Source of the DNA: an uncultured Ruminococcus sp.
GTDB lineage: Bacteria > Bacillota > Clostridia > Oscillospirales > Acutalibacteraceae
DNA length: 32,451 nucleotides
NCBI GenBank assembly: GCA_902778175.1
Contig: CACYWT010000015.1
Location: 1-32,451 of the forward strand
Direction of reading: 5' to 3'
The translations under genes were made by a program, and so were the position numbers. Shown here piece after piece: positions 149-29,975 of the stretch. Numbering within the stretch: the first letter of the stretch is position 1; every line of letters starts with the position of its first letter. A model generated the notes under the pieces. The model made no database searches, had not been told where the DNA came from, and worked only from the letters and a program-made list of their open reading frames with translations.

Positions 149-170
149 TTAAGGCAACACCGCACAAATA
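149..170 (+). repeat. Solo end of the interspersed GGCAAYACCGCACAAA repeat
   Basis: TTAAGGCAACACCGCACAAA here matches the terminal motif seen at 30297, 31060 (inverted) and 32354. Only the end motif is present. It lies directly against the terminator of the downstream minus-strand gene, and its ACAAATAAAAAA part supplies that terminator's T tract. Confidence 0.6.
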
Positions 171-206
171 AAAAAACACTTCCGGTATAAAAATATCGGA
201 AGTGTT
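168..206 (-). terminator. Rho-independent terminator of the zinc-ribbon/CBM26 gene
   Basis: Stem 175-187 pairs with 194-206 (AACACTTCCGGTA type, one wobble). Read on the minus strand it is followed by a run of T. It sits about 40 bases after the stop codon at 246. Confidence 0.8.
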
Positions 207-245: not shown

Positions 246-2438
246 TCAGTCCTTCTTGGAATCCTTGTCATATTTTCCGCCGTTTTTGACAGTAAAGCCG
301 CCGTTTTTCGGAACCTGCTTTTTGCCGTCGTTGAATACTACGAGCGGTTCTTCGATATCAGCAGGAACCTCATATGAATATGTACCGTCACCGTTATTCT
401 TCATCGCTTCGCCGGGCCAATCATTGTTCTTGCTGCCGCCGTTGTTTTTAGCATAAACATAGGCATTGATATTATCGCCCCAATTGTCAGGCTTTGTAAA
501 AGTAATAACTATCTTATCTCCGCTGGCAGGAGCTGCTGCGGAATCAGATGCGGTCGAAGGAGCTGCCGATTCAGTCGCAGCAGCGCTTGATGTACTCGTC
601 TGACCTGCTGTTGATGCTGTGCTGGTTTCACTGGTCTTATTACCAGAGAAAGCAACTATTACTATTACTATAATTGCGATAACAAGAATCGCAACAATAG
701 CTATCGGAACAATAAGCTTCTTACCGCCGTTGTTCGGTGCGTGAACAACATTGACAGTTGCGCCTCTGACCTGTTTTCCGTCAAATTTCATCGGAGCTTC
801 CTTGATATTGCTCGAATCGAAATTATTGAACTGATTACTCTGCTGAGCAGAAATTGATTTATCTCTTTCTATGCGCTCCTTGAGGTTCTTGACATATGAA
901 TCTGTATCGAAATTGGGATCTGCGGTACTGCTGCTTGAAACAGGAGTAGCAGACCACTGTTTCTGACCCTGAGGCTGCTGCTGTACAGGTCTTTGCTGCG
1001 GAGCCGGCTGACGCTGCTGGCGGGGCTGCTGTGCAGGTGCAGATTCGGTTGACCACTGTTTCTTCTGCGGCGCTGCCTGCTGCGGCTGCTGTGCAGGTGC
1101 AGGTTCGGTTGACCACTGTTTCTTCTGCGGCGTTGCCTGCTGCGGCTGCTGTGCAGGAGCAGGCTCTGTTGACCACTGCTTTTTCTGCGGTGCTGCCTGC
1201 TGCGGCTGCTGTTTGGGAGCAGGCTCGGTTGACCACTGTTTCTTCTGTGGTGCTGCCTGCTGCGGCTGCTGTGCAGGTGCAGGCTCTGTTGACCACTGTT
1301 TCTTCTGCGGTACTGCCTGCTGCGGCTGCTGTGCAGGTGCAGGTTCGGTTGACCACTGCTTTTTCTGCGGTGCTGCCTGCTGCGGCTGCTGTGCAGGTGC
1401 AGGTTCGGTTGACCACTGTTTTTTCTGCGGTGCTGCCTGCTGCGGCTGCTGTGCAGGTGCAGGTTCGGTTGACCACTGTTTCTTCTGCGTTGTTGCCTGC
1501 TGCGGCTGAGGCTGCTCTGTTTTCTGTTCCGGAACAGATGCTTTTTGCAGCGCTGCAGCGTTATTACGCATACTCTTTCTTCTCTGCTCTGCAGGAGATG
1601 CCGCTTCGGGGCTGTTTATATCAGGAAGCTTATCCTTGACCTCTTCGGACTGAATGGGAGTAAGCTTGACAGCAGGGGTATGACGTATCTGATCTATTGT
1701 AACTTCTTTTTCCGGCTGCATCGGCGGAAGAACACCTGTCAGCTTTTCGCCCTCGATGGGTGTAAGCTTTACTGCAGGTGTATTCGCGATATCATTGATA
1801 GATACAGGCTTTTCCTTCTGCATAGGCGGAAGAGGCGTCTTATCTCCGCCTGTGGGCAGATCAGGAAGATCGGTACTTTCAACTATAGTAGTTTCTACGA
1901 ATCTCTGTTCAAAGCCGGGGCCGTTTGATTTCTGTCTGAACTGTGAAAAAATAGTATTTGCTTTTTCTTCAGCTTCACGTCTTAATTCGGCTTCGCGTCT
2001 TGCACGGGCTTCAGCTCTGAGTCTTTCTTCCTCAGCGATCCTGTACCTTTCTCTTGCTTCCTGCTCAGCCTTGATCTTAGCTTCTTTTTCAGCTCTCGCC
2101 TTAGCCTCCGCCTCGGCTTTCTTGCGGGCTTCTTCATCCCGTTTAGCCTTTTCCTCGGCTTCTCGGCGAGCCTTCTCTTCCGCCTTGGCTTTCTCAGCGG
2201 CAGCGCGTTCTTCCGCTTCCGCTTCTGCCTTTTTACGAGCCTCTTCTTCTTCTTTGGCGCGTTTTTCCGCTTCCTGTCGGGCAGCTTCTTCTTCCTTGGC
2301 GCGTTCTTCTGCTTCAAGCTCGCGGTCCATTTCTTCCTTGGACTTGCCCTCTTTGACATTATATCCGCAGAAAGGACAGTTTTCACCGTTATTTACAATC
2401 TGCATTCCGCAGCCCGGACAACTGATTAGTAATGCCAT
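246..2438 (-). CDS. Zinc-ribbon, coiled-coil, repeat-rich membrane protein with external CBM26-like domain
   Basis: 730 residues. Order of parts: N-terminal zinc ribbon with Cys7, Cys10, Cys21 and Cys24; a long Ala/Glu/Lys/Arg coiled coil (about 33-165); Pro-rich repeats of the LPPMQ/TPAVKLTPI type; eight 20-residue repeats around QKKQWSTEPAPAQQPQQ (about 313-470) plus a degenerate ninth; one hydrophobic segment (about 574-600); a Ser/Thr/Ala linker; and a C-terminal domain (about 638-725) with WGDNINAYVY, WPGEAM, YSYEVP and VVFNDG, which resembles starch-binding module CBM26. There is no signal peptide, so the ribbon and coil should be cytosolic and the CBM outside. GAGGAG precedes the ATG and a clear promoter and terminator make it monocistronic. 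No catalytic domain is visible. A role as starch sensor or tether is inference. Confidence 0.85.
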   Translation of the reverse strand: MALLISCPGCGMQIVNNGENCPFCGYNVKEGKSKEEMDRELEAEERAKEEEAARQEAEKRAKEEEEARKKAEAEAEERAAAEKAKAEEKARREAEEKAKRDEEARKKAEAEAKARAEKEAKIKAEQEARERYRIAEEERLRAEARARREAELRREAEEKANTIFSQFRQKSNGPGFEQRFVETTIVESTDLPDLPTGGDKTPLPPMQKEKPVSINDIANTPAVKLTPIEGEKLTGVLPPMQPEKEVTIDQIRHTPAVKLTPIQSEEVKDKLPDINSPEAASPAEQRRKSMRNNAAALQKASVPEQKTEQPQPQQATTQKKQWSTEPAPAQQPQQAAPQKKQWSTEPAPAQQPQQAAPQKKQWSTEPAPAQQPQQAVPQKKQWSTEPAPAQQPQQAAPQKKQWSTEPAPKQQPQQAAPQKKQWSTEPAPAQQPQQATPQKKQWSTEPAPAQQPQQAAPQKKQWSTESAPAQQPRQQRQPAPQQRPVQQQPQGQKQWSATPVSSSSTADPNFDTDSYVKNLKERIERDKSISAQQSNQFNNFDSSNIKEAPMKFDGKQVRGATVNVVHAPNNGGKKLIVPIAIVAILVIAIIVIVIVAFSGNKTSETSTASTAGQTSTSSAAATESAAPSTASDSAAAPASGDKIVITFTKPDNWGDNINAYVYAKNNGGSKNNDWPGEAMKNNGDGTYSYEVPADIEEPLVVFNDGKKQVPKNGGFTVKNGGKYDKDSKKD
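1021..1500 (-). repeat. Eight tandem 60-bp repeats inside the CBM26-protein gene
   Basis: The period is exactly 60 bp over eight units with a few percent divergence; each encodes 20 residues rich in Pro, Gln and Ala with a conserved KKQWSTE core. Because the period is a multiple of three and the units lack stops, all frames stay open here and create spurious ORFs on both strands. Confidence 0.95.
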
Positions 2439-2510: not shown

Positions 2511-2539
2511 ATTATATAATAAAATTATGATACAGTCAA
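2511..2539 (-). promoter_or_regulatory. Sigma-A type promoter of the CBM26-protein gene
   Basis: On the minus strand, TTGACT (2534-2539), a 17-base spacer and TATAAT (2511-2516). Predicted leader is about 65 nt before the ATG at 2438. Confidence 0.75.
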
Positions 2540-7051: not shown

Positions 7052-7418
7052 ATTTCATGCTTTCAACTATCCTTACTGCATTTCTTACGCAGTCGTCACA
7101 GGAACATAGCACCTTCCCTGTTCCGATCCCTTTCAGATCGGCGCAGCGTACCGCTCCGCAGCTTTGTCTGAAAGCTGCAAGTATCTCTCTGCCTCCGGCT
7201 GCATTGCGTCTGCTGTTCATAAGACTATCCACCATGACCGCGCCGACAAGCGCTCCGCAATTGCCCTCCATACAGCCCATTCCGGAACCGAATCCTGCTC
7301 CGAGTGTACGCAGTGTGTTTTCATCAGGCGACAGAATATCAGCATAGCTCAGCAGCACCGCCTGACAGCAATTGCATCCGCTGTGTTTAAGCTCTATTGC
7401 TTTATCTTCTCTGTTCAT
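7050..7418 (-). CDS. C_GCAxxG_C_C family protein
   Basis: 122 residues from the ATG at 7418. An upstream ATG at 7430 exists, but GGAGGAG starting right at it serves the ATG at 7418. The protein shows the spaced Cys/Gly pattern that names the family: HSGCNCCQAV, LGAGFGSGMGCMEGNCGAL, RQSCGAVRCADL and CSCDDCV. Members are small Cys-rich, presumed redox or metal-cofactor proteins of anaerobes; the biochemical role is not established. Its ATG overlaps the stop of the preceding two-TM gene (ATGA), so it is translationally coupled to that cluster. Whether the functions are linked or only the transcripts is unclear. Confidence 0.85.
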   Translation of the reverse strand: MNREDKAIELKHSGCNCCQAVLLSYADILSPDENTLRTLGAGFGSGMGCMEGNCGALVGAVMVDSLMNSRRNAAGGREILAAFRQSCGAVRCADLKGIGTGKVLCSCDDCVRNAVRIVESMK

Positions 7419-8065
7419 AATCTCCTCCATGCTATCATATGTATAATATCCGGCAAAAACTGACTGGAAATATTATAGATCAAAACTAATATATTCAATA
7501 CCAGACCTATAATGCATACTGTTTTCGCTGTTTTTCTGCTTGATTCAGCCTTTTCATCTGACGCTCCCGGCTCCGCTGCCTTCGATACGGAAACAAGACC
7601 GATTATCGCAAATATCAGACCTATGCCTCCCATGCTGAATATCAGTGAGATAATTCCGAATATCAAGCCCTTGCCGTTATTTGCAGAAGTGACGACTCTA
7701 TTGTTTAAGCCCTGATAATATCCGGCTTTATCCGGAGTAAAGGGTGCCTGCGGAGGAGATGTATAATTTGCGGAAGAATTATTGCCAATACTGCCGCCCT
7801 GAACGTCCGGAAAAACAGGACGAGCCGCTTCGTTTAAGCTGTAGGCGTTATCGGTAAATGACTTGTCCGATCCACCGGACGGTAAAGAATAGCGATCATC
7901 AGGCATGGAATAATGATCCTGCTCCTGCGCTGACGAAAAATCCGACTCATCATAATCGTCTGATAATGATGATCCGTAATCTGAATACTTGTTATCATTC
8001 TGCGGAAAGCTCTGCTCCGGAAATATCTCGTCAAAGGACATTTCCGTTATATTTCTTTTCTCCAT
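7415..8065 (-). CDS. Two-TM protein with acidic disordered N-terminus (paralogue 4 of 4)
   Basis: 216 residues. Residues 1-130 are low complexity (Ser, Asp, Tyr, Pro) with no fold visible. Two hydrophobic segments follow, about 133-160 (GKGLIFGIISLIFSMGGIGL) and 184-205 (AKTVCIIGLVLNILVLIY). This resembles DUF4190-type membrane proteins: a Gly-rich first helix beginning G..SLI/GI.S, then a short charged loop, then a second helix of the AGxxCSIxGIxLNI kind. Three neighbours upstream share the layout. GGTAGGAGTG lies before the ATG and 12 bases separate it from the previous gene. The stop overlaps the next start. Function unknown; the long soluble N-terminus suggests a cytosolic interaction arm, which is inference. 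Confidence 0.8.
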   Translation of the reverse strand: MEKRNITEMSFDEIFPEQSFPQNDNKYSDYGSSLSDDYDESDFSSAQEQDHYSMPDDRYSLPSGGSDKSFTDNAYSLNEAARPVFPDVQGGSIGNNSSANYTSPPQAPFTPDKAGYYQGLNNRVVTSANNGKGLIFGIISLIFSMGGIGLIFAIIGLVSVSKAAEPGASDEKAESSRKTAKTVCIIGLVLNILVLIYNISSQFLPDIIHMIAWRRL

Positions 8066-8077
8066 ACGCTGTCACTC

Positions 8078-8494
8078 CTACCAGAAAAGAATTATCCCCA
8101 GAATCCCAAGAATTGTAATAACCGTGGAAATAAGATTCAATGAAATGCCTAATATCGAACATATCATGCCTGCCACTGCAGCTCCGGAACGGTTTTGCAG
8201 ATAGACCTGATTGCTCTTTTTATCGTCATTTGAAAGAAATATCCCTATTCCTCCGAGTATAAGCGGAAGTAGCGGTACTACACAGCTTAATACTGAAAGC
8301 ACTCCGCAGATAAGACTTCCTACGCCGGAACCGCCCTTTGCAGTATAAAGAGGCTTTGAAAGCTGATGCTGCGGCGGCTGGTATTCAGTCATCTGCTTTT
8401 CTTCCTGACCGGGCGGATCATCTTCCATTACATTCGGATTGAAGATAGGCATATTGTCCTGTTCGGTAGTTTGTGTATCTCGGTAATCACTCAT
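8078..8494 (-). CDS. Two-TM DUF4190-like protein (paralogue 3 of 4)
   Basis: 138 residues from the ATG at 8494 (MSDYRD), nine bases after GGAGG; an ATG at 8500 is only three bases from that site and less likely. A short Pro/Gln-rich polar N-terminus (about 1-50) is followed by GSLICGVLSVLSCVVPLLPLI plus GGIGIFLS, a charged loop (NDDKKSNQVYLQNRSG) and a second helix pair AGMICSILGISLNLISTVITI. The pattern is shared with its three neighbours, most closely with the next gene upstream (CGLVSVLICFLPLIPLI). It probably arose by tandem duplication. Role unknown. Confidence 0.82.
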   Translation of the reverse strand: MSDYRDTQTTEQDNMPIFNPNVMEDDPPGQEEKQMTEYQPPQHQLSKPLYTAKGGSGVGSLICGVLSVLSCVVPLLPLILGGIGIFLSNDDKKSNQVYLQNRSGAAVAGMICSILGISLNLISTVITILGILGIILFW

Positions 8495-8517
8495 AAACAT
8501 AATCCTCCGTTCTGTTG

Positions 8518-8952
8518 TCAGAATATCTTCAGCGCGCTTGCCGCATCAACAAAAATCAGCGGAACGATATAGAAGAAAAAGCTTATAAGAAGGCTCAGGA
8601 CGATCCCAACAAAACCGCAGACCTTGCCGGCTATAGCAGTTCCCGGAGGAGGCATATCATTCATACGCGCGCTTTTACGGGCCTCCCTTGCGGTAAACAT
8701 CGCAACAAGACCGGTTATCAGCGGTATCAAGGGCAAAAAGCAGATTAACACAGATACCAATCCGCAGATACAGCTTATTATCGCGCTTGCGGAATCGTTC
8801 GGCTCACGCATTACGGGCATTGAAGCATAATCGCCGTCAAAGCCGCTCTCTTCATCTGTGTTTTCTTCGCCTCTCATATTCGTATAAGTAGGCTCGACCC
8901 TTAACGGTATATTATCAGGCTTTTCCAGATTCTTTTTCTTGTAATAATTCAT
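8518..8952 (-). CDS. Two-TM DUF4190-like protein (paralogue 2 of 4)
   Basis: 144 residues. Polar N-terminus of about 55 residues, then SAIISCICGLVSVLICFLPL running into IPLITGLVAMFTA, a basic loop (REARKSARMNDMPPPG) and AGKVCGFVGIVLSLLISFFF. The same helix, loop, AGxxC helix order is seen in the two genes after it and in the one before it. GGAGG is seven bases from the ATG. The loop between helices is basic here, charged in the other copies, so it is probably cytosolic. A 146-base gap separates it from the first paralogue; no promoter is obvious there. Role unknown. Confidence 0.82.
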   Translation of the reverse strand: MNYYKKKNLEKPDNIPLRVEPTYTNMRGEENTDEESGFDGDYASMPVMREPNDSASAIISCICGLVSVLICFLPLIPLITGLVAMFTAREARKSARMNDMPPPGTAIAGKVCGFVGIVLSLLISFFFYIVPLIFVDAASALKIF

Positions 8953-9098
8953 TGTTTTGCCTCCGATGAAATATCATGGGAAACGCCGGTCATCTTATCG
9001 ACGGCTTTCACAGCGCGGATCAGGCGAGCTGCATATAGCGTATTCGGGCTTAATACAAAGCTTACAGTCCGATGCAGCCATTGTTTCCCAAGCTGTTA

Positions 9099-9839
9099 TC
9101 ATGTGAAATATCTGTCGTAGAAATCATCAAGATCGTCGTCATCATAGTAATAATGATATCCGTAATCATCACGATCATCTTTATCATGTGACTTGCCTGA
9201 ACTTTCATCTGTGCCGAATACTACTGAGAGCACTATCGCCGCTACAAAGATCAGCGTCATGATTATATTCAGTATCAGTCCGATAAGAGAACAAACAAAG
9301 CCCGCCTTTGAATTTGATGACTGCGGCAGACCGACCGATTCTGCCTTTTTCTTTGCGCTCGATGAAAGTCCTATTCCTATGCCGCCCAGAACAGCGCCGA
9401 GCACCGGTGCGTTGATAAGCACAATTGACGCGACACCGAGTATCAATCCGGGAACATCCTTGTTATTCTGCTGATTTACACGATTGTTGTAAATATAGTT
9501 ATTATTCGGATACTGTGCATAAGCCGGAGGAGGCATCTGCCCCGGAACTCCGTAAGGCGGCGGAGGCGGCGGAGTGTTCGGCGCTCCGTAATTCGGCATC
9601 TGATTATTATTGCCGTAATAACTATCATTCTGCTGTGAAAAATACGAAGGAGCGACACTGTTGTAGGGATTGTTTCCATACGGCGCAGGTCCCCCCTGCG
9701 GCGGCATCGGCGGAACATTGCCAGGCGCAGGCATCTGCGCATTTTCCGGAGCATCTTTCCTGAGATTCACCGTCGGCTGTTCATGAGCCTCATTTTCCGG
9801 ATTATTATTCATATTGTTATTATTATCCATATTATCCAT
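9099..9839 (-). CDS. Two-TM protein with Asn/Pro-rich N-terminus and acidic tail (paralogue 1 of 4)
   Basis: 246 residues. Residues 1-130 are Asn-, Pro-, Gln- and Tyr-rich and probably disordered (APYGNNPYNS, PPPPPPYGVPGQMPPP). Hydrophobic segments lie at about 134-160 (GLILGVASIVLINAPVLGAV plus GGIGIGLS) and 180-207 (AGFVCSLIGLILNIIMTLIF). The C-terminus is strikingly acidic and aromatic (DDYGYHYYYDDDDLDDFYD). The core matches the three following genes. It is the promoter-proximal gene of the cluster. Its acid/Tyr tail recalls the small protein encoded just upstream (YNYYDEYLGYQ), perhaps by composition only. Role unknown. Confidence 0.82.
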   Translation of the reverse strand: MDNMDNNNNMNNNPENEAHEQPTVNLRKDAPENAQMPAPGNVPPMPPQGGPAPYGNNPYNSVAPSYFSQQNDSYYGNNNQMPNYGAPNTPPPPPPYGVPGQMPPPAYAQYPNNNYIYNNRVNQQNNKDVPGLILGVASIVLINAPVLGAVLGGIGIGLSSSAKKKAESVGLPQSSNSKAGFVCSLIGLILNIIMTLIFVAAIVLSVVFGTDESSGKSHDKDDRDDYGYHYYYDDDDLDDFYDRYFT

Positions 9840-20071: not shown

Positions 20072-20104
20072 TTTCCCTCCGGTATTGCCGGGGGGATTTT
20101 TTTG
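20072..20104 (+). terminator. Terminator of the aminotransferase gene
   Basis: Stem CCCTCCGG (20075-20082) with CCGGGGGG (20088-20095), followed by a run of seven T. Confidence 0.9.
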
Positions 20105-20155
20105 CCTTTTTGTGCTAAAGTATACAAAATTTCTCAAAAAAAATACAGTTTTCTA

Positions 20156-20185
20156 TTTACTAATACAGTTGCTTTGTGATATAAT
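20156..20185 (+). promoter_or_regulatory. Promoter of mscL
   Basis: TTTACT (20156-20161), 18-base spacer, TATAAT (20180-20185), about 32 bases before the ATG. Confidence 0.65.
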
Positions 20186-20216
20186 ATGTTTATCAATTTT
20201 TACGGAGGAATGTCAT

Positions 20217-20687
20217 ATGGGTAAACTTATAGGCGAATTCAAAGAATTTATTATGAGAGGCAACGTAATGGATCTTGCTGTCGGTGTTATCATCGGCGGA
20301 GCTTTCGGATCTATCGTTACTTCTCTGTGTAATGATGTTATCATGCCGGGCGTAAGCTGGATAATTGCAACTGTTTCCGGAATGGATTTCACCAATCCCG
20401 AAACCGGACAGCTTGATTTCACAAAGGTCACTCAGTCGCTTAATGTCGGACCGATAAATTTCGGCAACTTTGCTGCTGCTATAATCTATTTCCTTATCAT
20501 GGCTATCATCATCTTCATCATGGTAAAGGCTGTAAACAAGCTCACCTCCATTGCAAAGAAAAAGGAAGAGGAAGCTCCCACGACCAAGGAATGTCCTTTC
20601 TGCTGCAGCGAGATCGCTATCAAGGCTACACGCTGCCCTCATTGTACAGCTGTTCTTGAAGAGGCTGCTGCTGCGCTCAAGAAATAA
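20217..20687 (+). CDS. mscL: Large-conductance mechanosensitive channel with C-terminal zinc ribbon
   Basis: 156 residues from the ATG at 20217 behind ACGGAGGAATGTC; a longer frame from 20085 reads through the previous terminator and is rejected. The N-terminal amphipathic helix and pore helix are typical (FKEFIMRGNVMDLAVGVIIG, GAFGSIVTSLCNDVIMPG), and the second TM helix is IIYFLIMAIIIFIMVKAVN. The C-terminus adds KECPFCCSEIAIKATRCPHC, two CxxC pairs forming a small zinc ribbon absent from the E. coli protein but common, as I recall, in clostridial MscL. The homopentamer opens under membrane tension to release solutes during osmotic downshock. It is a single gene. Confidence 0.95.
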   Translation: MGKLIGEFKEFIMRGNVMDLAVGVIIGGAFGSIVTSLCNDVIMPGVSWIIATVSGMDFTNPETGQLDFTKVTQSLNVGPINFGNFAAAIIYFLIMAIIIFIMVKAVNKLTSIAKKKEEEAPTTKECPFCCSEIAIKATRCPHCTAVLEEAAAALKK

Positions 20688-27119: not shown

Positions 27120-29975
27120 TTAAGACAAAACAAAATTATACCTTTTAGGTGTCATTACCGTAGTATCATGAGTATACAATATTATATAGTATTTCTGACC
27201 TGATGTTAAGGCAATATTGATAAGAACATTACCCCCGTCATAATCACTGGCTATCAATACTCCGTTACTGTTATAAACTTTGCATTTTAGGCTTTTCTCA
27301 GGTATTTCTTCATCTTTATTAGGATGATCATCATAGAAAACTGTTGCTTCACTTTCATAAGGCGTTGAAATGTTTATAGTATATGTTTTCGTTGAAGAAG
27401 GAGTAAAATAAAATACATCCTGATCTTTATTAAAATCCATCAGCCCGGAATTATGTCCTAATGTTTTGGAACAAGCTGTTTCAAAATTTTCACCGCCTTT
27501 AATAAAACCAGCAAAGCTTACTAATTTCGTATGATTACACTGATTCTGTGGATTGTTAGTATAAAAATCATCACAGCATCTCTTGTTATGTGCGCAATCG
27601 ATGATAGCATTTTTTGTTATTTCGTAAAGAGTTACTTGTCCGTTCACATAGATTCCATTAAGAGCTTGAGAGATAATATTATCATTTGTTAAAACTATAG
27701 TTGTATTTGGGTTGCTATTTAACGGTTTGTTTGAAATATTTTTGCCTCCATCTTTGTGAGACCATGTTCCGTCATTATGCTGCATATAAAAATGGTATCC
27801 TCTACCATCTTGTTTTGTAACAAGTGCCACCAATCTTGAATTGATTCCTTGTTGTGGTACGGAAGAAAATGTAATCGGCACTTGGGTTATTGTGTACCCT
27901 AATCGTTGAGCATCATATTTCATATTATTATAAATTCGACTTGTTGCATCTGATGCACTTGATCCATAAATATTCGTGATATTATTTTTCTTATTATACA
28001 CAGAAGCAAATTCACCCGGCTGCTGTCGATAACCATAATCACTAAATTCTACAGCAGTGTGAATATGTAAATCCGGTGATATGCTAACAGGAACACCCAA
28101 CATAAAACCAAAGGCATAACCGTAACAATTCATACGAAATCTTACTTCATCTGTTATATTCAATGGAAAAACATAATTATCATTTAAATAATATTTAGTA
28201 TAATCATATTTGGAATAGTACTGATTCTGTACAATTTCATTTGTATATACTACTGTTAAGCTTGGTTTGAGCGTAAAGCGATTATATGAAGCAAATTCCT
28301 TAAATTTATCATTTGTTCCTGATTCAACAGTATCCGACGTTTTAAACAGAATCCCCAAATCTTTTGAAACAGAACCGTCAACCCAACATTTTACAGCTCC
28401 GGAAATGTCGAAGTTGAATTTATGTGTCGTTGTATTATGAACAATAACACTGTCCAATTGTAAAAGACGATAATCTTTTGAGGTACTGTTCCACGAAGCG
28501 CTGTTTTCTGACCATGTACTGCCGCCGTACATATAACAATAAACACGAACAGATTCCTCTTGATGTCTGCAATCTATCATTTCTACAGTTGCACTTGTAA
28601 CATTTAAGGAAGAATGAATATTTGTAAGTGATAACCACGGAAACTTCATAAGTGTTCTTGCTTTCAATCCGTTTTTGCGACCTACATACAGGTCACTGCC
28701 GGTTCCGTTAAACGTATTATTGCTGTAAACGGTTACATCACGAATACCGCCATCACCATTATTAGTGTAGTTTACGTTGATGGTCGGATCGATCCGTATC
28801 GGATATACCGTTGCTTCATCACTGAGATATTCGTCATCTACATGAAGCGTAATACGGTACTGTTCATTCGGAGTTATTTCATCGCATATTATTTCACCTG
28901 TTGTATTGTTGCTGTCGTCTGCGGAATACACAATGATATCTCCGATAGCGGCTTTTACTTCGTTTTTATCATTCATAAGATAATATGAACCGTCATTTTC
29001 GCTGACAGCAAGACCTGCGGTGTCAAGAATAAAGGAATAGTCCGTCTGCCCCGTGTATTCGCTTACTATGATATCTTCCTTTATGCCTTCATATGTAAGC
29101 GTATAAACATAATCTGTATTTTCGTCCGCACTGTAGGTCACACTTCCGCCTGTTTTTTCGGCAAATACATTTTCTCCTGTTATTTCCGCTGTAATGCGCA
29201 GGTCTGTATCTTCATATCCGAGTTCAATGCCTTCCGTAAAATCATGCGGAAATTGAGTGATCACATAATGATCAGCCGATACATATCCTCCGTTTCCGTC
29301 CTCTTTGACATCAAGGGTAATATCTCTGGTTTCTCCATCGCTGTCAATATACTTTACCGGGTGGCTGTAAAGCCGCATCGTTCCTGTTCCGTCGGAATTT
29401 CTGAAAACGAAGGTATAAAGATTTTCTTCCGAATCCTTATCTCTTGCAACATAGCCGTTTTCCTGCGCTTCTTTTTCGCTTACTATTGCAGGAAGAACAA
29501 ATCCCTCGGTATCGCCTTTTTCTCCGCTTTCTTTCGATTTGGATGGTTCGCTTTCATCAGTTTTTTCAATAGTAATTACTGCTTCCTGTTCTTCATCTGA
29601 TTCTTTATCGGATTCCTCAGAGATAATCTCGCTCGGTTCTTCTGTATGTTCCGGCTCGGTCATTTTTTCCGACGAATCAGAGTCTTCTTCTGTTTCGCTG
29701 CTTTCCTCCGAAGCTTCCTGCTGAATACTTTCAGAGTTTTCATCGCTTTCTTCCGGCTGTGTAACATCTTCGGTTTTGTATAATGTTTCTTTATCTTCTG
29801 ATGTTTCGTTTTCCAACAGGAAATCCGAATCGTCCGAAGGATCAGATTCTGTTGTTTCCGAAGATTCCGCTGTGAGTTCGGCACCGATGCATTCCTCTTC
29901 GGCAGCTCCAACACTTATCGGAGCTGCTAAAAGAGATAGAACGATTGCCATTGCCATTAGTTTTTTCACTTTCAC
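27120..29975 (-). CDS. Large secreted DNRLRE-type surface protein with NCY...HFY...WSHK domain
   Basis: 951 residues from a GTG with AAGGAG upstream. Signal peptide (about 1-25, ending VGAA), an acidic Glu/Ser/Asp linker (about 26-160), a beta-rich region like the front of RHS/wall-associated proteins (YTFVFRNSDGTGTMRLYS to YPIRIDPTI, about 175-400), a DNRLRE-like domain (about 405-570; SATVEMID, STWSENSASWNS, FNFDISGAVKCWVDG), a core domain with MNCYGYAFGFMLG (Cys near 614), RLVALVTKQDGRGYHFYMQ and DGTWSHKDGG (near 725-742), a Cys-rich stretch, and a C-terminal PPC-like beta domain (about 850-951; DVFYFTPSSTKTYTINIS, KYYIILYTHD). The Cys and His could form a papain-like or amidase-like pair; this is inference. 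The second half is AT-richer than the first. Confidence 0.8.
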   Translation of the reverse strand: MKVKKLMAMAIVLSLLAAPISVGAAEEECIGAELTAESSETTESDPSDDSDFLLENETSEDKETLYKTEDVTQPEESDENSESIQQEASEESSETEEDSDSSEKMTEPEHTEEPSEIISEESDKESDEEQEAVITIEKTDESEPSKSKESGEKGDTEGFVLPAIVSEKEAQENGYVARDKDSEENLYTFVFRNSDGTGTMRLYSHPVKYIDSDGETRDITLDVKEDGNGGYVSADHYVITQFPHDFTEGIELGYEDTDLRITAEITGENVFAEKTGGSVTYSADENTDYVYTLTYEGIKEDIIVSEYTGQTDYSFILDTAGLAVSENDGSYYLMNDKNEVKAAIGDIIVYSADDSNNTTGEIICDEITPNEQYRITLHVDDEYLSDEATVYPIRIDPTINVNYTNNGDGGIRDVTVYSNNTFNGTGSDLYVGRKNGLKARTLMKFPWLSLTNIHSSLNVTSATVEMIDCRHQEESVRVYCYMYGGSTWSENSASWNSTSKDYRLLQLDSVIVHNTTTHKFNFDISGAVKCWVDGSVSKDLGILFKTSDTVESGTNDKFKEFASYNRFTLKPSLTVVYTNEIVQNQYYSKYDYTKYYLNDNYVFPLNITDEVRFRMNCYGYAFGFMLGVPVSISPDLHIHTAVEFSDYGYRQQPGEFASVYNKKNNITNIYGSSASDATSRIYNNMKYDAQRLGYTITQVPITFSSVPQQGINSRLVALVTKQDGRGYHFYMQHNDGTWSHKDGGKNISNKPLNSNPNTTIVLTNDNIISQALNGIYVNGQVTLYEITKNAIIDCAHNKRCCDDFYTNNPQNQCNHTKLVSFAGFIKGGENFETACSKTLGHNSGLMDFNKDQDVFYFTPSSTKTYTINISTPYESEATVFYDDHPNKDEEIPEKSLKCKVYNSNGVLIASDYDGGNVLINIALTSGQKYYIILYTHDTTVMTPKRYNFVLS

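What the first reader, a model, noticed from the sequence alone, without database searches (positions are those of the whole stretch)
246..2438. Zinc ribbon to external CBM26: a possible starch sensor or tether
Seen: an intracellular-type zinc ribbon, a long charged coiled coil, eight 20-residue Trp-containing Pro/Gln repeats, one TM helix and a C-terminal starch-binding-like module, with no signal peptide and no enzyme domain. Known: CBM26 modules normally sit on secreted amylases or amylosome parts. Inference: the CBM faces outwards while the ribbon and coil face inwards, so starch contact could be passed to the cytosol, or cytosolic machinery could be tethered near starch granules. I do not know of a described system with this layout.
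Basis: partly seen in the sequence, partly recalled or inferred. Interest (0 to 1): 0.75.

Follow-up and report, generated by a model that had tools for sequence, protein, structure and literature searches.

The report
Membrane protein displaying a starch-binding module
A starch-degrading gut bacterium, probably from the rumen, makes a membrane protein with a zinc ribbon and a long rod inside the cell and, outside, a starch-binding module that about two in five of the sampled genomes of its genus have lost or let decay, so it is more likely a surface starch tether on a conserved internal scaffold than a proven starch sensor.

Summary
ORF 246-2438(-) is 730 aa: Cys4 zinc ribbon, 136-residue charged helix, two conserved LPPMQ...NTPAV-LTPI repeats, Trp-containing Pro/Gln repeats, one TM helix, Ser/Thr/Ala linker, CBM26 (65.5 bits, cut-off 28.1). 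The charged segment reads better as a single alpha-helix than a coiled coil. Charge bias puts the N-terminus inside. The gene has its own promoter-like site (31 of 34 family members examined) and no starch gene among the identified neighbours. In the data searched the family is confined to this genus: at least 52 of 64 genus genomes, 0 of 392 others in the order. The core is conserved, the exterior is not: of 38 genomes read, 16 have one WPG-bearing CBM26, 6 have two, 9 a module without that Trp, 7 none or a stub. The core stays under purifying selection in lineages without the module. Four other proteins of this genome share the layout zinc ribbon, linker, TM, exterior domain, and zinc ribbons joined to exterior ligand domains are in print. 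Best reading: a cytosol-anchored surface alpha-glucan tether on a genus-specific scaffold. No matched output domain supports a starch sensor, though one is not excluded. New variant of a known kind.

The parts
246..2438 (-). gene of 730 aa: zinc ribbon, helix, repeats, TM, CBM26
   Evidence: ORF; family alignment A1
2511..2539 (-). promoter-like site TTGACT-17-TATAAT, 72 nt before the start codon
   Evidence: 11 of 12 matches; a site with 10 or more of 12 matches in 31 of 34 family members, window included
2340..2438 (-). residues 1-33, Cys4 zinc ribbon (C7, C10, C21, C24)
   Evidence: second CPxC present in all 34 N-termini that have the first; Pfam UPF0547 19.3 bits, below cut-off 29
1932..2339 (-). 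residues 34-169, charged single alpha-helix
   Evidence: AlphaFold2 helix 34-169 without alignment; i,i+4 charge pairing against shuffles
1614..1832 (-). residues 203-275, two conserved LPPMQ...NTPAV-LTPI repeats
   Evidence: invariant columns in A1 and A2; as profile A2 it marks the family
1024..1508 (-). eight 20-aa Pro/Gln repeats with KKQWSTEPAP-type motif
   Evidence: TRF period 60, 8.1 copies, 92% matches; W at 322-462 every 20 residues
954..956 (-). W495, ninth Trp motif outside the tandem array
759..917 (-). residues 508-560, conserved juxtamembrane region (PNFD..SYVKNLK, PMKFDGK)
   Evidence: A1
648..704 (-). residues 579-597, single transmembrane helix
   Evidence: hydropathy and charge bias
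513..647 (-). residues 598-642, Ser/Thr/Ala-rich linker, predicted outside
306..506 (-). residues 645-711, CBM26
   Evidence: PF16738 65.5 bits, cut-off 28.1; same place at 69.7 bits in the genome scan
453..455 (-). Y662, predicted binding-site aromatic
   Evidence: position counted; conserved column; spacing to W674 as Sas20d1 Y60/W72
417..419 (-). W674 of the WPG motif, predicted binding-site aromatic
   Evidence: W72A of Sas20d1 bound neither ligand (PMC9112005, passages)
166..206 (-). hairpin 175-206, followed on the - strand by a T-run: probable terminator
   Evidence: hairpin listed on the + strand only; the - strand T-run is my reading

Best explanation
A genus-specific, single-pass membrane protein. 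Its cytosolic side (zinc ribbon, usually a long charged helix, two conserved LPPMQ/NTPAV repeats, Trp repeats) is a conserved, multivalent-looking scaffold or anchor. In about three in five of the genomes read, its outside end carries one or two CBM26 modules, mostly on a flexible Ser/Thr linker. Most likely mechanism: the CBM26 holds alpha-glucan (starch or malto-oligosaccharide) at the cell surface, as the short CBM26 lipoproteins of related species and the lipid-anchored CBM26 amylase of this genome would, while the cytosolic part holds or clusters the protein in the membrane. Shown by computation: domain order, conservation, TM and charge bias, CBM26 profile match, loss or decay of the module while the core persists, own promoter-like site. 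Inferred: starch binding, clustering, any partner of the Trp and LPPMQ motifs.
For: CBM26 by profile. Best PDB sequence matches are Ruminococcus bromii Amy16, Sas6, Amy10, then Amy13K (with profile A1, Sas6 and Amy10). BhCBM26 (2c3h, 2c3g) is among the best fold matches of a weak model, E 0.02. Y662/W674 spaced as in Sas20d1. N-in by charge bias. Short CBM26 lipoproteins in relatives (13 loci fetched) and a CBM26 amylase with a lipobox-like signal in this genome (L011). All 61 genus genomes scanned carry CBM26. Core kept whatever the exterior, dN/dS 0.077-0.159 in the three CBM-less pairs tested. Promoter-like site conserved. Four own-genome proteins share the layout with other exteriors.
Against: No binding was measured. 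Sixteen of 38 genomes lack the WPG Trp, so starch binding is not the family's common function. The CBM model is of low confidence (mean pLDDT 61.5). No starch gene among the identified neighbours. The scaffold role rests on low-complexity and motif features, not on a partner. The long helix is missing from L053, L126 and L128 (my reading), so it is not universal. One search is not one-sided: the stub exterior of CBM-less L124/L134 gave 0.168, as low as real modules, in one pair (L065/L129) the core (0.274) is less constrained than the exterior (0.135), and several dS are near saturation.
Confidence: 0.5

Rival explanations
1. Transmembrane starch sensor: CBM26 occupancy outside, probably through clustering, changes the state of the cytosolic zinc ribbon or Trp repeats and alters expression of starch genes.
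For: Zinc ribbons joined to exterior ligand domains have been compared with signalling proteins (PMC3924330, passages). The multivalent-looking cytosolic part could respond to clustering (inference).
Against: No HTH, kinase, GGDEF or other output domain was matched. Low-complexity stretches flank the TM. The module is lost or lacks the WPG Trp in 16 of 38 genomes although all 61 genus genomes scanned still carry CBM26 somewhere.
Confidence: 0.15
2. The core works in the envelope independently of starch (for example in cell shape, division or wall synthesis); the CBM26 is an accessory that often decays.
For: Core under purifying selection in CBM-less pairs (dN/dS 0.159, 0.083, 0.077). Own promoter-like site. 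Identified neighbours in relatives are housekeeping and spore genes: rluB-like, S11 carboxypeptidase, ytfJ, scpB, dpaA and a flavoprotein taken as dpaB.
Against: The exterior is under purifying selection where CBM26 is kept (0.135-0.316 in the 5 of 6 such pairs that could be computed) and the module is doubled in 6 of 38 genomes, so it matters in those lineages. The dpa linkage is absent in the window's own genome.
Confidence: 0.25
3. The exterior module binds another alpha-glucan or a self-made surface glycan instead of dietary starch.
For: Members with a CBM26-like module without the WPG Trp still evolve under constraint (L050, L119, L121: exterior dN/dS 0.183-0.194).
Against: In the window protein the aromatic pair and the NDGKKQ segment are kept.
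Confidence: 0.1

Closest known systems
Zinc ribbon + TM + exterior ligand domain proteins (NTF2-like DUF fusions of PMC3924330, passages; TcaA, layout recalled, a weak NCBIfam match to residues 6-49)
   Same: cytosolic zinc ribbon and an exterior domain; four such proteins lie in this genome too
   Different: exterior domain here is CBM26; long charged helix, LPPMQ/NTPAV repeats and Trp repeats are family features
Ruminococcus bromii Sas6/Sas20 and CBM26 amylases (amylosome)
   Same: CBM26-type modules; Amy16, Sas6 and Amy10 are the best solved sequence matches
   Different: those of Table 1 of PMC9112005 seen are secreted with a signal peptide and many carry dockerins; this protein has neither, and the genome shows one dockerin match
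SusE/SusF surface starch-binding lipoproteins of Bacteroides
   Same: starch binding at the cell surface (lipoproteins, passage of PMC9112005; lack of enzyme activity recalled)
   Different: TM anchor with a large cytosolic part in place of a lipid anchor; other module family (X25-type for SusF, passage)
STBD1, mammalian starch-binding-domain membrane protein
   Same: membrane protein with a glucan-binding module (start of abstract of PMC5358331; CBM20 from the 8x8k title); tether role recalled
   Different: eukaryotic, other CBM family, module on the cytosolic side (recalled)

Membership tests
CBM26 (PF16738) | profile match above the curated cut-off | tested here: met
   65.5 bits against 28.1
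CBM26 (PF16738) | aromatic binding pair | tested here: met
   Y662 and W674, 12 residues apart as Y60/W72 in Sas20d1; judged by spacing, not by a structural alignment
CBM26 (PF16738) | beta-sandwich fold | tested here: inconclusive
   mostly beta model of mean pLDDT 61.5; BhCBM26 at rank 5, E 0.021, no match at E 0.001 or below
CBM26 (PF16738) | binds starch or maltodextrin | not testable with these tools
   needs affinity electrophoresis or ITC
Zinc ribbon / single TM / exterior domain proteins | N-terminal Cys4 ribbon | tested here: met
   Cys pattern; Pfam UPF0547 below cut-off
Zinc ribbon / single TM / exterior domain proteins | one TM with N-in topology | tested here: met
   TM 579-597, K+R 5 before and 1 after; prediction only
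Amylosome component | dockerin or cohesin | tested here: not met
   no such match in the protein; one dockerin match in the genome, on C7; cohesin not searched genome-wide
Amylosome component | signal peptide | tested here: not met
   only hydrophobic helix is 579-597
Transmembrane signal receptor | recognisable cytosolic output domain | tested here: not met
   none in Pfam or NCBIfam
SusE/F-like surface starch-binding protein | lipid anchor | tested here: not met
   TM anchor; the separate lipoproteins of relatives have a lipobox by my reading

The most novel reading that the evidence does not exclude
A cytosol-coupled starch receptor: contact with a starch granule clusters the single-pass proteins through CBM26, and the dense array of cytosolic rods, LPPMQ/NTPAV repeats and Trp motifs recruits an intracellular partner (for example secretion or envelope machinery) to the contact site, so that the cell polarises towards its food. 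Loss of the module in some species would turn the same scaffold to another cue.
Probability: 0.12. Interest if true: 0.75.

Novelty: new variant of a known kind. Interest (0 to 1): 0.42.

Why it matters
If the tether reading is right, these starch degraders display CBM26 from the membrane with a large conserved cytosolic anchor, a way of holding starch outside the dockerin/sortase amylosome. The natural series of intact, doubled, decayed and lost modules on one conserved core makes it a clean system for asking what an exterior glycan module adds to an envelope scaffold.

Tried and rejected
Sporulation role: dpaB (named from a Flavoprotein match) lies downstream on the opposite strand in 15 of 20 relative loci, in L058 with four ORFs between; of the other five, L063, L064 and L068 end at the gene, L060 shows dpaA only, L067 has other genes. 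But in the window's genome dpaA/dpaB lie on contig C91 beside an ABC exporter, and the promoter-like site looks vegetative in 31 of 34. Rejected as weak.

Frameshift or assembly origin of the CBM-less members: no CBM26 remnant in three frames after seven such genes, read by eye over 500 nt and by a profile over 1500 nt with the window module as positive control; two genomes (L124, L134) share one stub. Rejected.

Classic coiled coil: no heptad signal. TolA match (30.2 bits, cut-off 59.45): below cut-off, put down to composition.

Amylosome part: no dockerin. Rumen origin is recalled from the isolate name; genus not identified. RNA families: 0 matches in the window. Fold search of residues 1-170: no match at E 0.001. 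On TcaA itself the paper searches gave nothing used; one search did list PMC3924330 and PMC12419801, which I then opened.

Not done: a search for zinc ribbon + CBM26 proteins of other descent outside the genus; genus genomes whose exterior part I did not fetch.

Full report
What is there. The ORF 246-2438(-) encodes 730 aa. Order: Cys4 zinc ribbon (C7, C10, C21, C24, the only cysteines); helix 34-169 (AlphaFold2 on residues 1-170 without alignment, mean pLDDT 89.6); two LPPMQ...NTPAV-LTPI repeats at 203-275; a 60-bp array of 8.1 copies giving Trp every 20 residues plus a ninth Trp motif; juxtamembrane block; TM 579-597; Ser/Thr/Ala linker; CBM26 645-711 (65.5 bits, cut-off 28.1). The charged stretch 34-163 has no heptad signal but far more i,i+4 opposite charges than shuffles (55 against 26.4; 0 of 1000 as high), which fits a single alpha-helix better than a coiled coil.

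Topology. Five K+R in the 30 residues before the TM and one after point to N-in/C-out. Of the 11 other members of A1 (L049-L059), 7 have 3-6 before and 0-1 after, L055 has 5 against 2, and the three whose module follows the TM directly (L050, L054, L056) have 5-6 against 3; the direction is the same in all 11. This is prediction, not measurement.

The CBM26. The closest solved sequences are R. bromii Amy16 (E 3.6e-5), Sas6 (0.0047), Amy10 (0.0067) and Amy13K (0.021). Y662 and W674 (counted; W) are 12 residues apart, as Y60 and W72 in Sas20d1, where W72A bound neither maltotriose nor maltoheptaose (PMC9112005, passages). I compared spacing, not structures. The model of residues 635-730 is poor (mean pLDDT 61.5); BhCBM26 (2c3h) ranks fifth with E 0.021, other starch-type CBMs and some unrelated beta folds are around it, and nothing reaches E 0.001.

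Distribution. A search with the whole protein found matches in 36 of 60 genomes (own included), all of one genus, some of them to CBM26 alone. With the middle segment as a profile (A2), 48 of 64 genus genomes match, 24 of 26 of those at least 90% complete and at most 5% contaminated (G030 and G074 are the two without). Four further genomes (G005, G009, G014, G033) show the juxtamembrane and exterior part, so at least 52 of 64. In the order, 2 of 394 genomes match, both of this genus, i.e. 0 of 392 others, 168 genera in all. All 61 genus genomes scanned have CBM26. A relative is titled uncultured Clostridiales bacterium RUG183.

The exterior varies, the core does not. One search read the part after the TM in 38 genomes (39 rows; one duplicate of G073 dropped): one WPG in 16 (window included; G015 is cut by its contig end), two in 6, none in 16. 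By my reading those 16 are 9 with a module lacking the Trp (G007, G013, G018, G019, G026, G072, G079, G080, G455) and 7 with no module or a stub (G002, G004, G011, G032, G065, G069, G073). These are the loci I had fetched, not all genus genomes. The seven CBM-less genes show no CBM26 remnant downstream, by eye over 500 nt in three frames and by profile over 1500 nt, with the window module found as control. On a 29-row tree of N-terminal, middle and juxtamembrane blocks the 'none' state needs four changes, of which well-supported branches force three; WPG against no WPG needs three (10 of 26 inner branches are poorly supported). The root is not known, so gains and losses cannot all be told apart; the stubs of L052, L124 and L134 point to loss in their clade.

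Selection. Pairwise dN/dS of the core was 0.077-0.274 over 12 pairs, and 0.159, 0.083, 0.077 in the three CBM-less pairs; the exterior (linker included) of WPG-bearing pairs gave 0.135-0.316 in 5 of 6, the sixth saturated; Trp-less modules gave 0.183-0.194 in three pairs (Nei-Gojobori, several dS near saturation). Against a simple story: the stub exterior of L124/L134 gave 0.168, and in L065/L129 the core (0.274) is less constrained than the exterior (0.135). Still, selection keeps the core where the CBM26 is gone, and keeps the CBM26 where present.

Cytosolic features. The long helix is not universal: L053, L126 and L128 lack it (my reading). The strict QW[ST]xxP motif is absent from L126, L128, L131 and L132, but L126, L128 and L131 keep QW[ST] repeats and L132 has DWSSNP/NWSADP, so a Trp motif is present in these too.

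Expression and neighbours. TTGACT-17-TATAAT lies 72 nt before the start in the window; a site of 10 or more of 12 matches is in 31 of 34 members with enough upstream sequence, window included (mean 9.6% in single-base shuffles); L049, L133 and L136 lack it. In relatives dpaB and dpaA lie downstream on the opposite strand in 15 of 20 loci (named by Pfam on L066 alone), but not in the window's genome. Upstream genes vary: an HD-domain gene in the window and L053; rluB-like, S11 carboxypeptidase, ytfJ and scpB in seven others. In the window, 24 other proteins were scanned and none matched a glycoside hydrolase or a CBM (several small ORFs were not scanned). The gene lies at a contig end, so its downstream side is unseen.

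Same layout elsewhere. In the window's genome L093, L094, L110 and L115 have an N-terminal zinc ribbon, a linker (Pro/Gln- or Pro/Ala-rich in L093 and L115), a TM and an exterior domain (in the frame as read L094 also has a hydrophobic stretch before its ribbon, and L110's ribbon is below the Pfam cut-offs). A 2013 paper describes exterior DUFs joined to intracellular zinc ribbons and compares them with signalling proteins (PMC3924330, passages only). Two searches for CBM26, or carbohydrate-binding module, with zinc ribbon gave 0 and 2 papers; of the two, PMC12419801 was looked at in two passages, which name no such protein, the other was seen only in the listing.

A second CBM26 surface class. 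Relatives carry lipoproteins of 196-253 aa with signal peptide, lipobox (my reading), acidic Ser/Glu or Ser/Thr linker and one CBM26 or CBM26-like module (13 loci fetched, L072-L084); the WPG Trp is kept in 6 of 13 (L072-L076, L082). I saw no such short lipoprotein in the window's genome among its 14 CBM26 matches, though its amylase L011 begins with a lipobox-like signal.

Mechanism. Best supported: a surface alpha-glucan tether carried by a conserved cytosolic scaffold, the CBM26 being an optional exterior part. Binding, clustering and partners are inferred. A sensor lacks a matched output domain and has to explain the frequent loss, so it ranks lower, but is not excluded.

Verdict. Real, well conserved and, in the data searched, restricted to one genus; a new variant of the known zinc ribbon / TM / exterior-domain kind.

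Noticed in passing
L072-L084 (same-genus genomes): A class of short CBM26 lipoproteins (196-253 aa, lipobox, acidic Ser/Glu or Ser/Thr linker); the WPG tryptophan is kept in 6 of 13 fetched.
   Followed up: partly
window 20085-20687 (+): MscL channel whose C-terminus carries a Cys4 zinc-ribbon-like motif (ECPFCCSE...CPHC).
   Followed up: partly
window 7415-9839 (-): Four consecutive short genes coding for a polar or Pro/Gln/Asn-rich N-terminus followed by hydrophobic, probably membrane-spanning stretches; only sub-cut-off Pfam matches (DUF4190 for one, MpPF26 and DUF4064 for others, none for one).
   Followed up: partly
L115 1079-3910 (own genome C9): 943-aa protein with seven zinc ribbons in Pro/Ala-rich repeats, one TM and an exterior part ending in DUF4854.
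   Followed up: partly
L114 2-310 (C91) and L016 3406-3852 (C28): The same translated stretch (IYPFSGSKNLPLNDSKPTACLCLLKAKLL) occurs on two contigs, next to dpaA and before a CBM26 fragment: a dispersed repeat.
   Followed up: no
L015 13289-15712 (own genome C19): 807-aa protein with at least two CBM26 copies, PT-rich linkers and, by my reading, a signal peptide and sortase-like C-terminus; no catalytic Pfam match.
   Followed up: partly
window 27120-29975 (-): 951-aa apparently secreted protein with a long acidic Ser/Glu-rich N-terminal region and no Pfam match at E 0.001.
   Followed up: no
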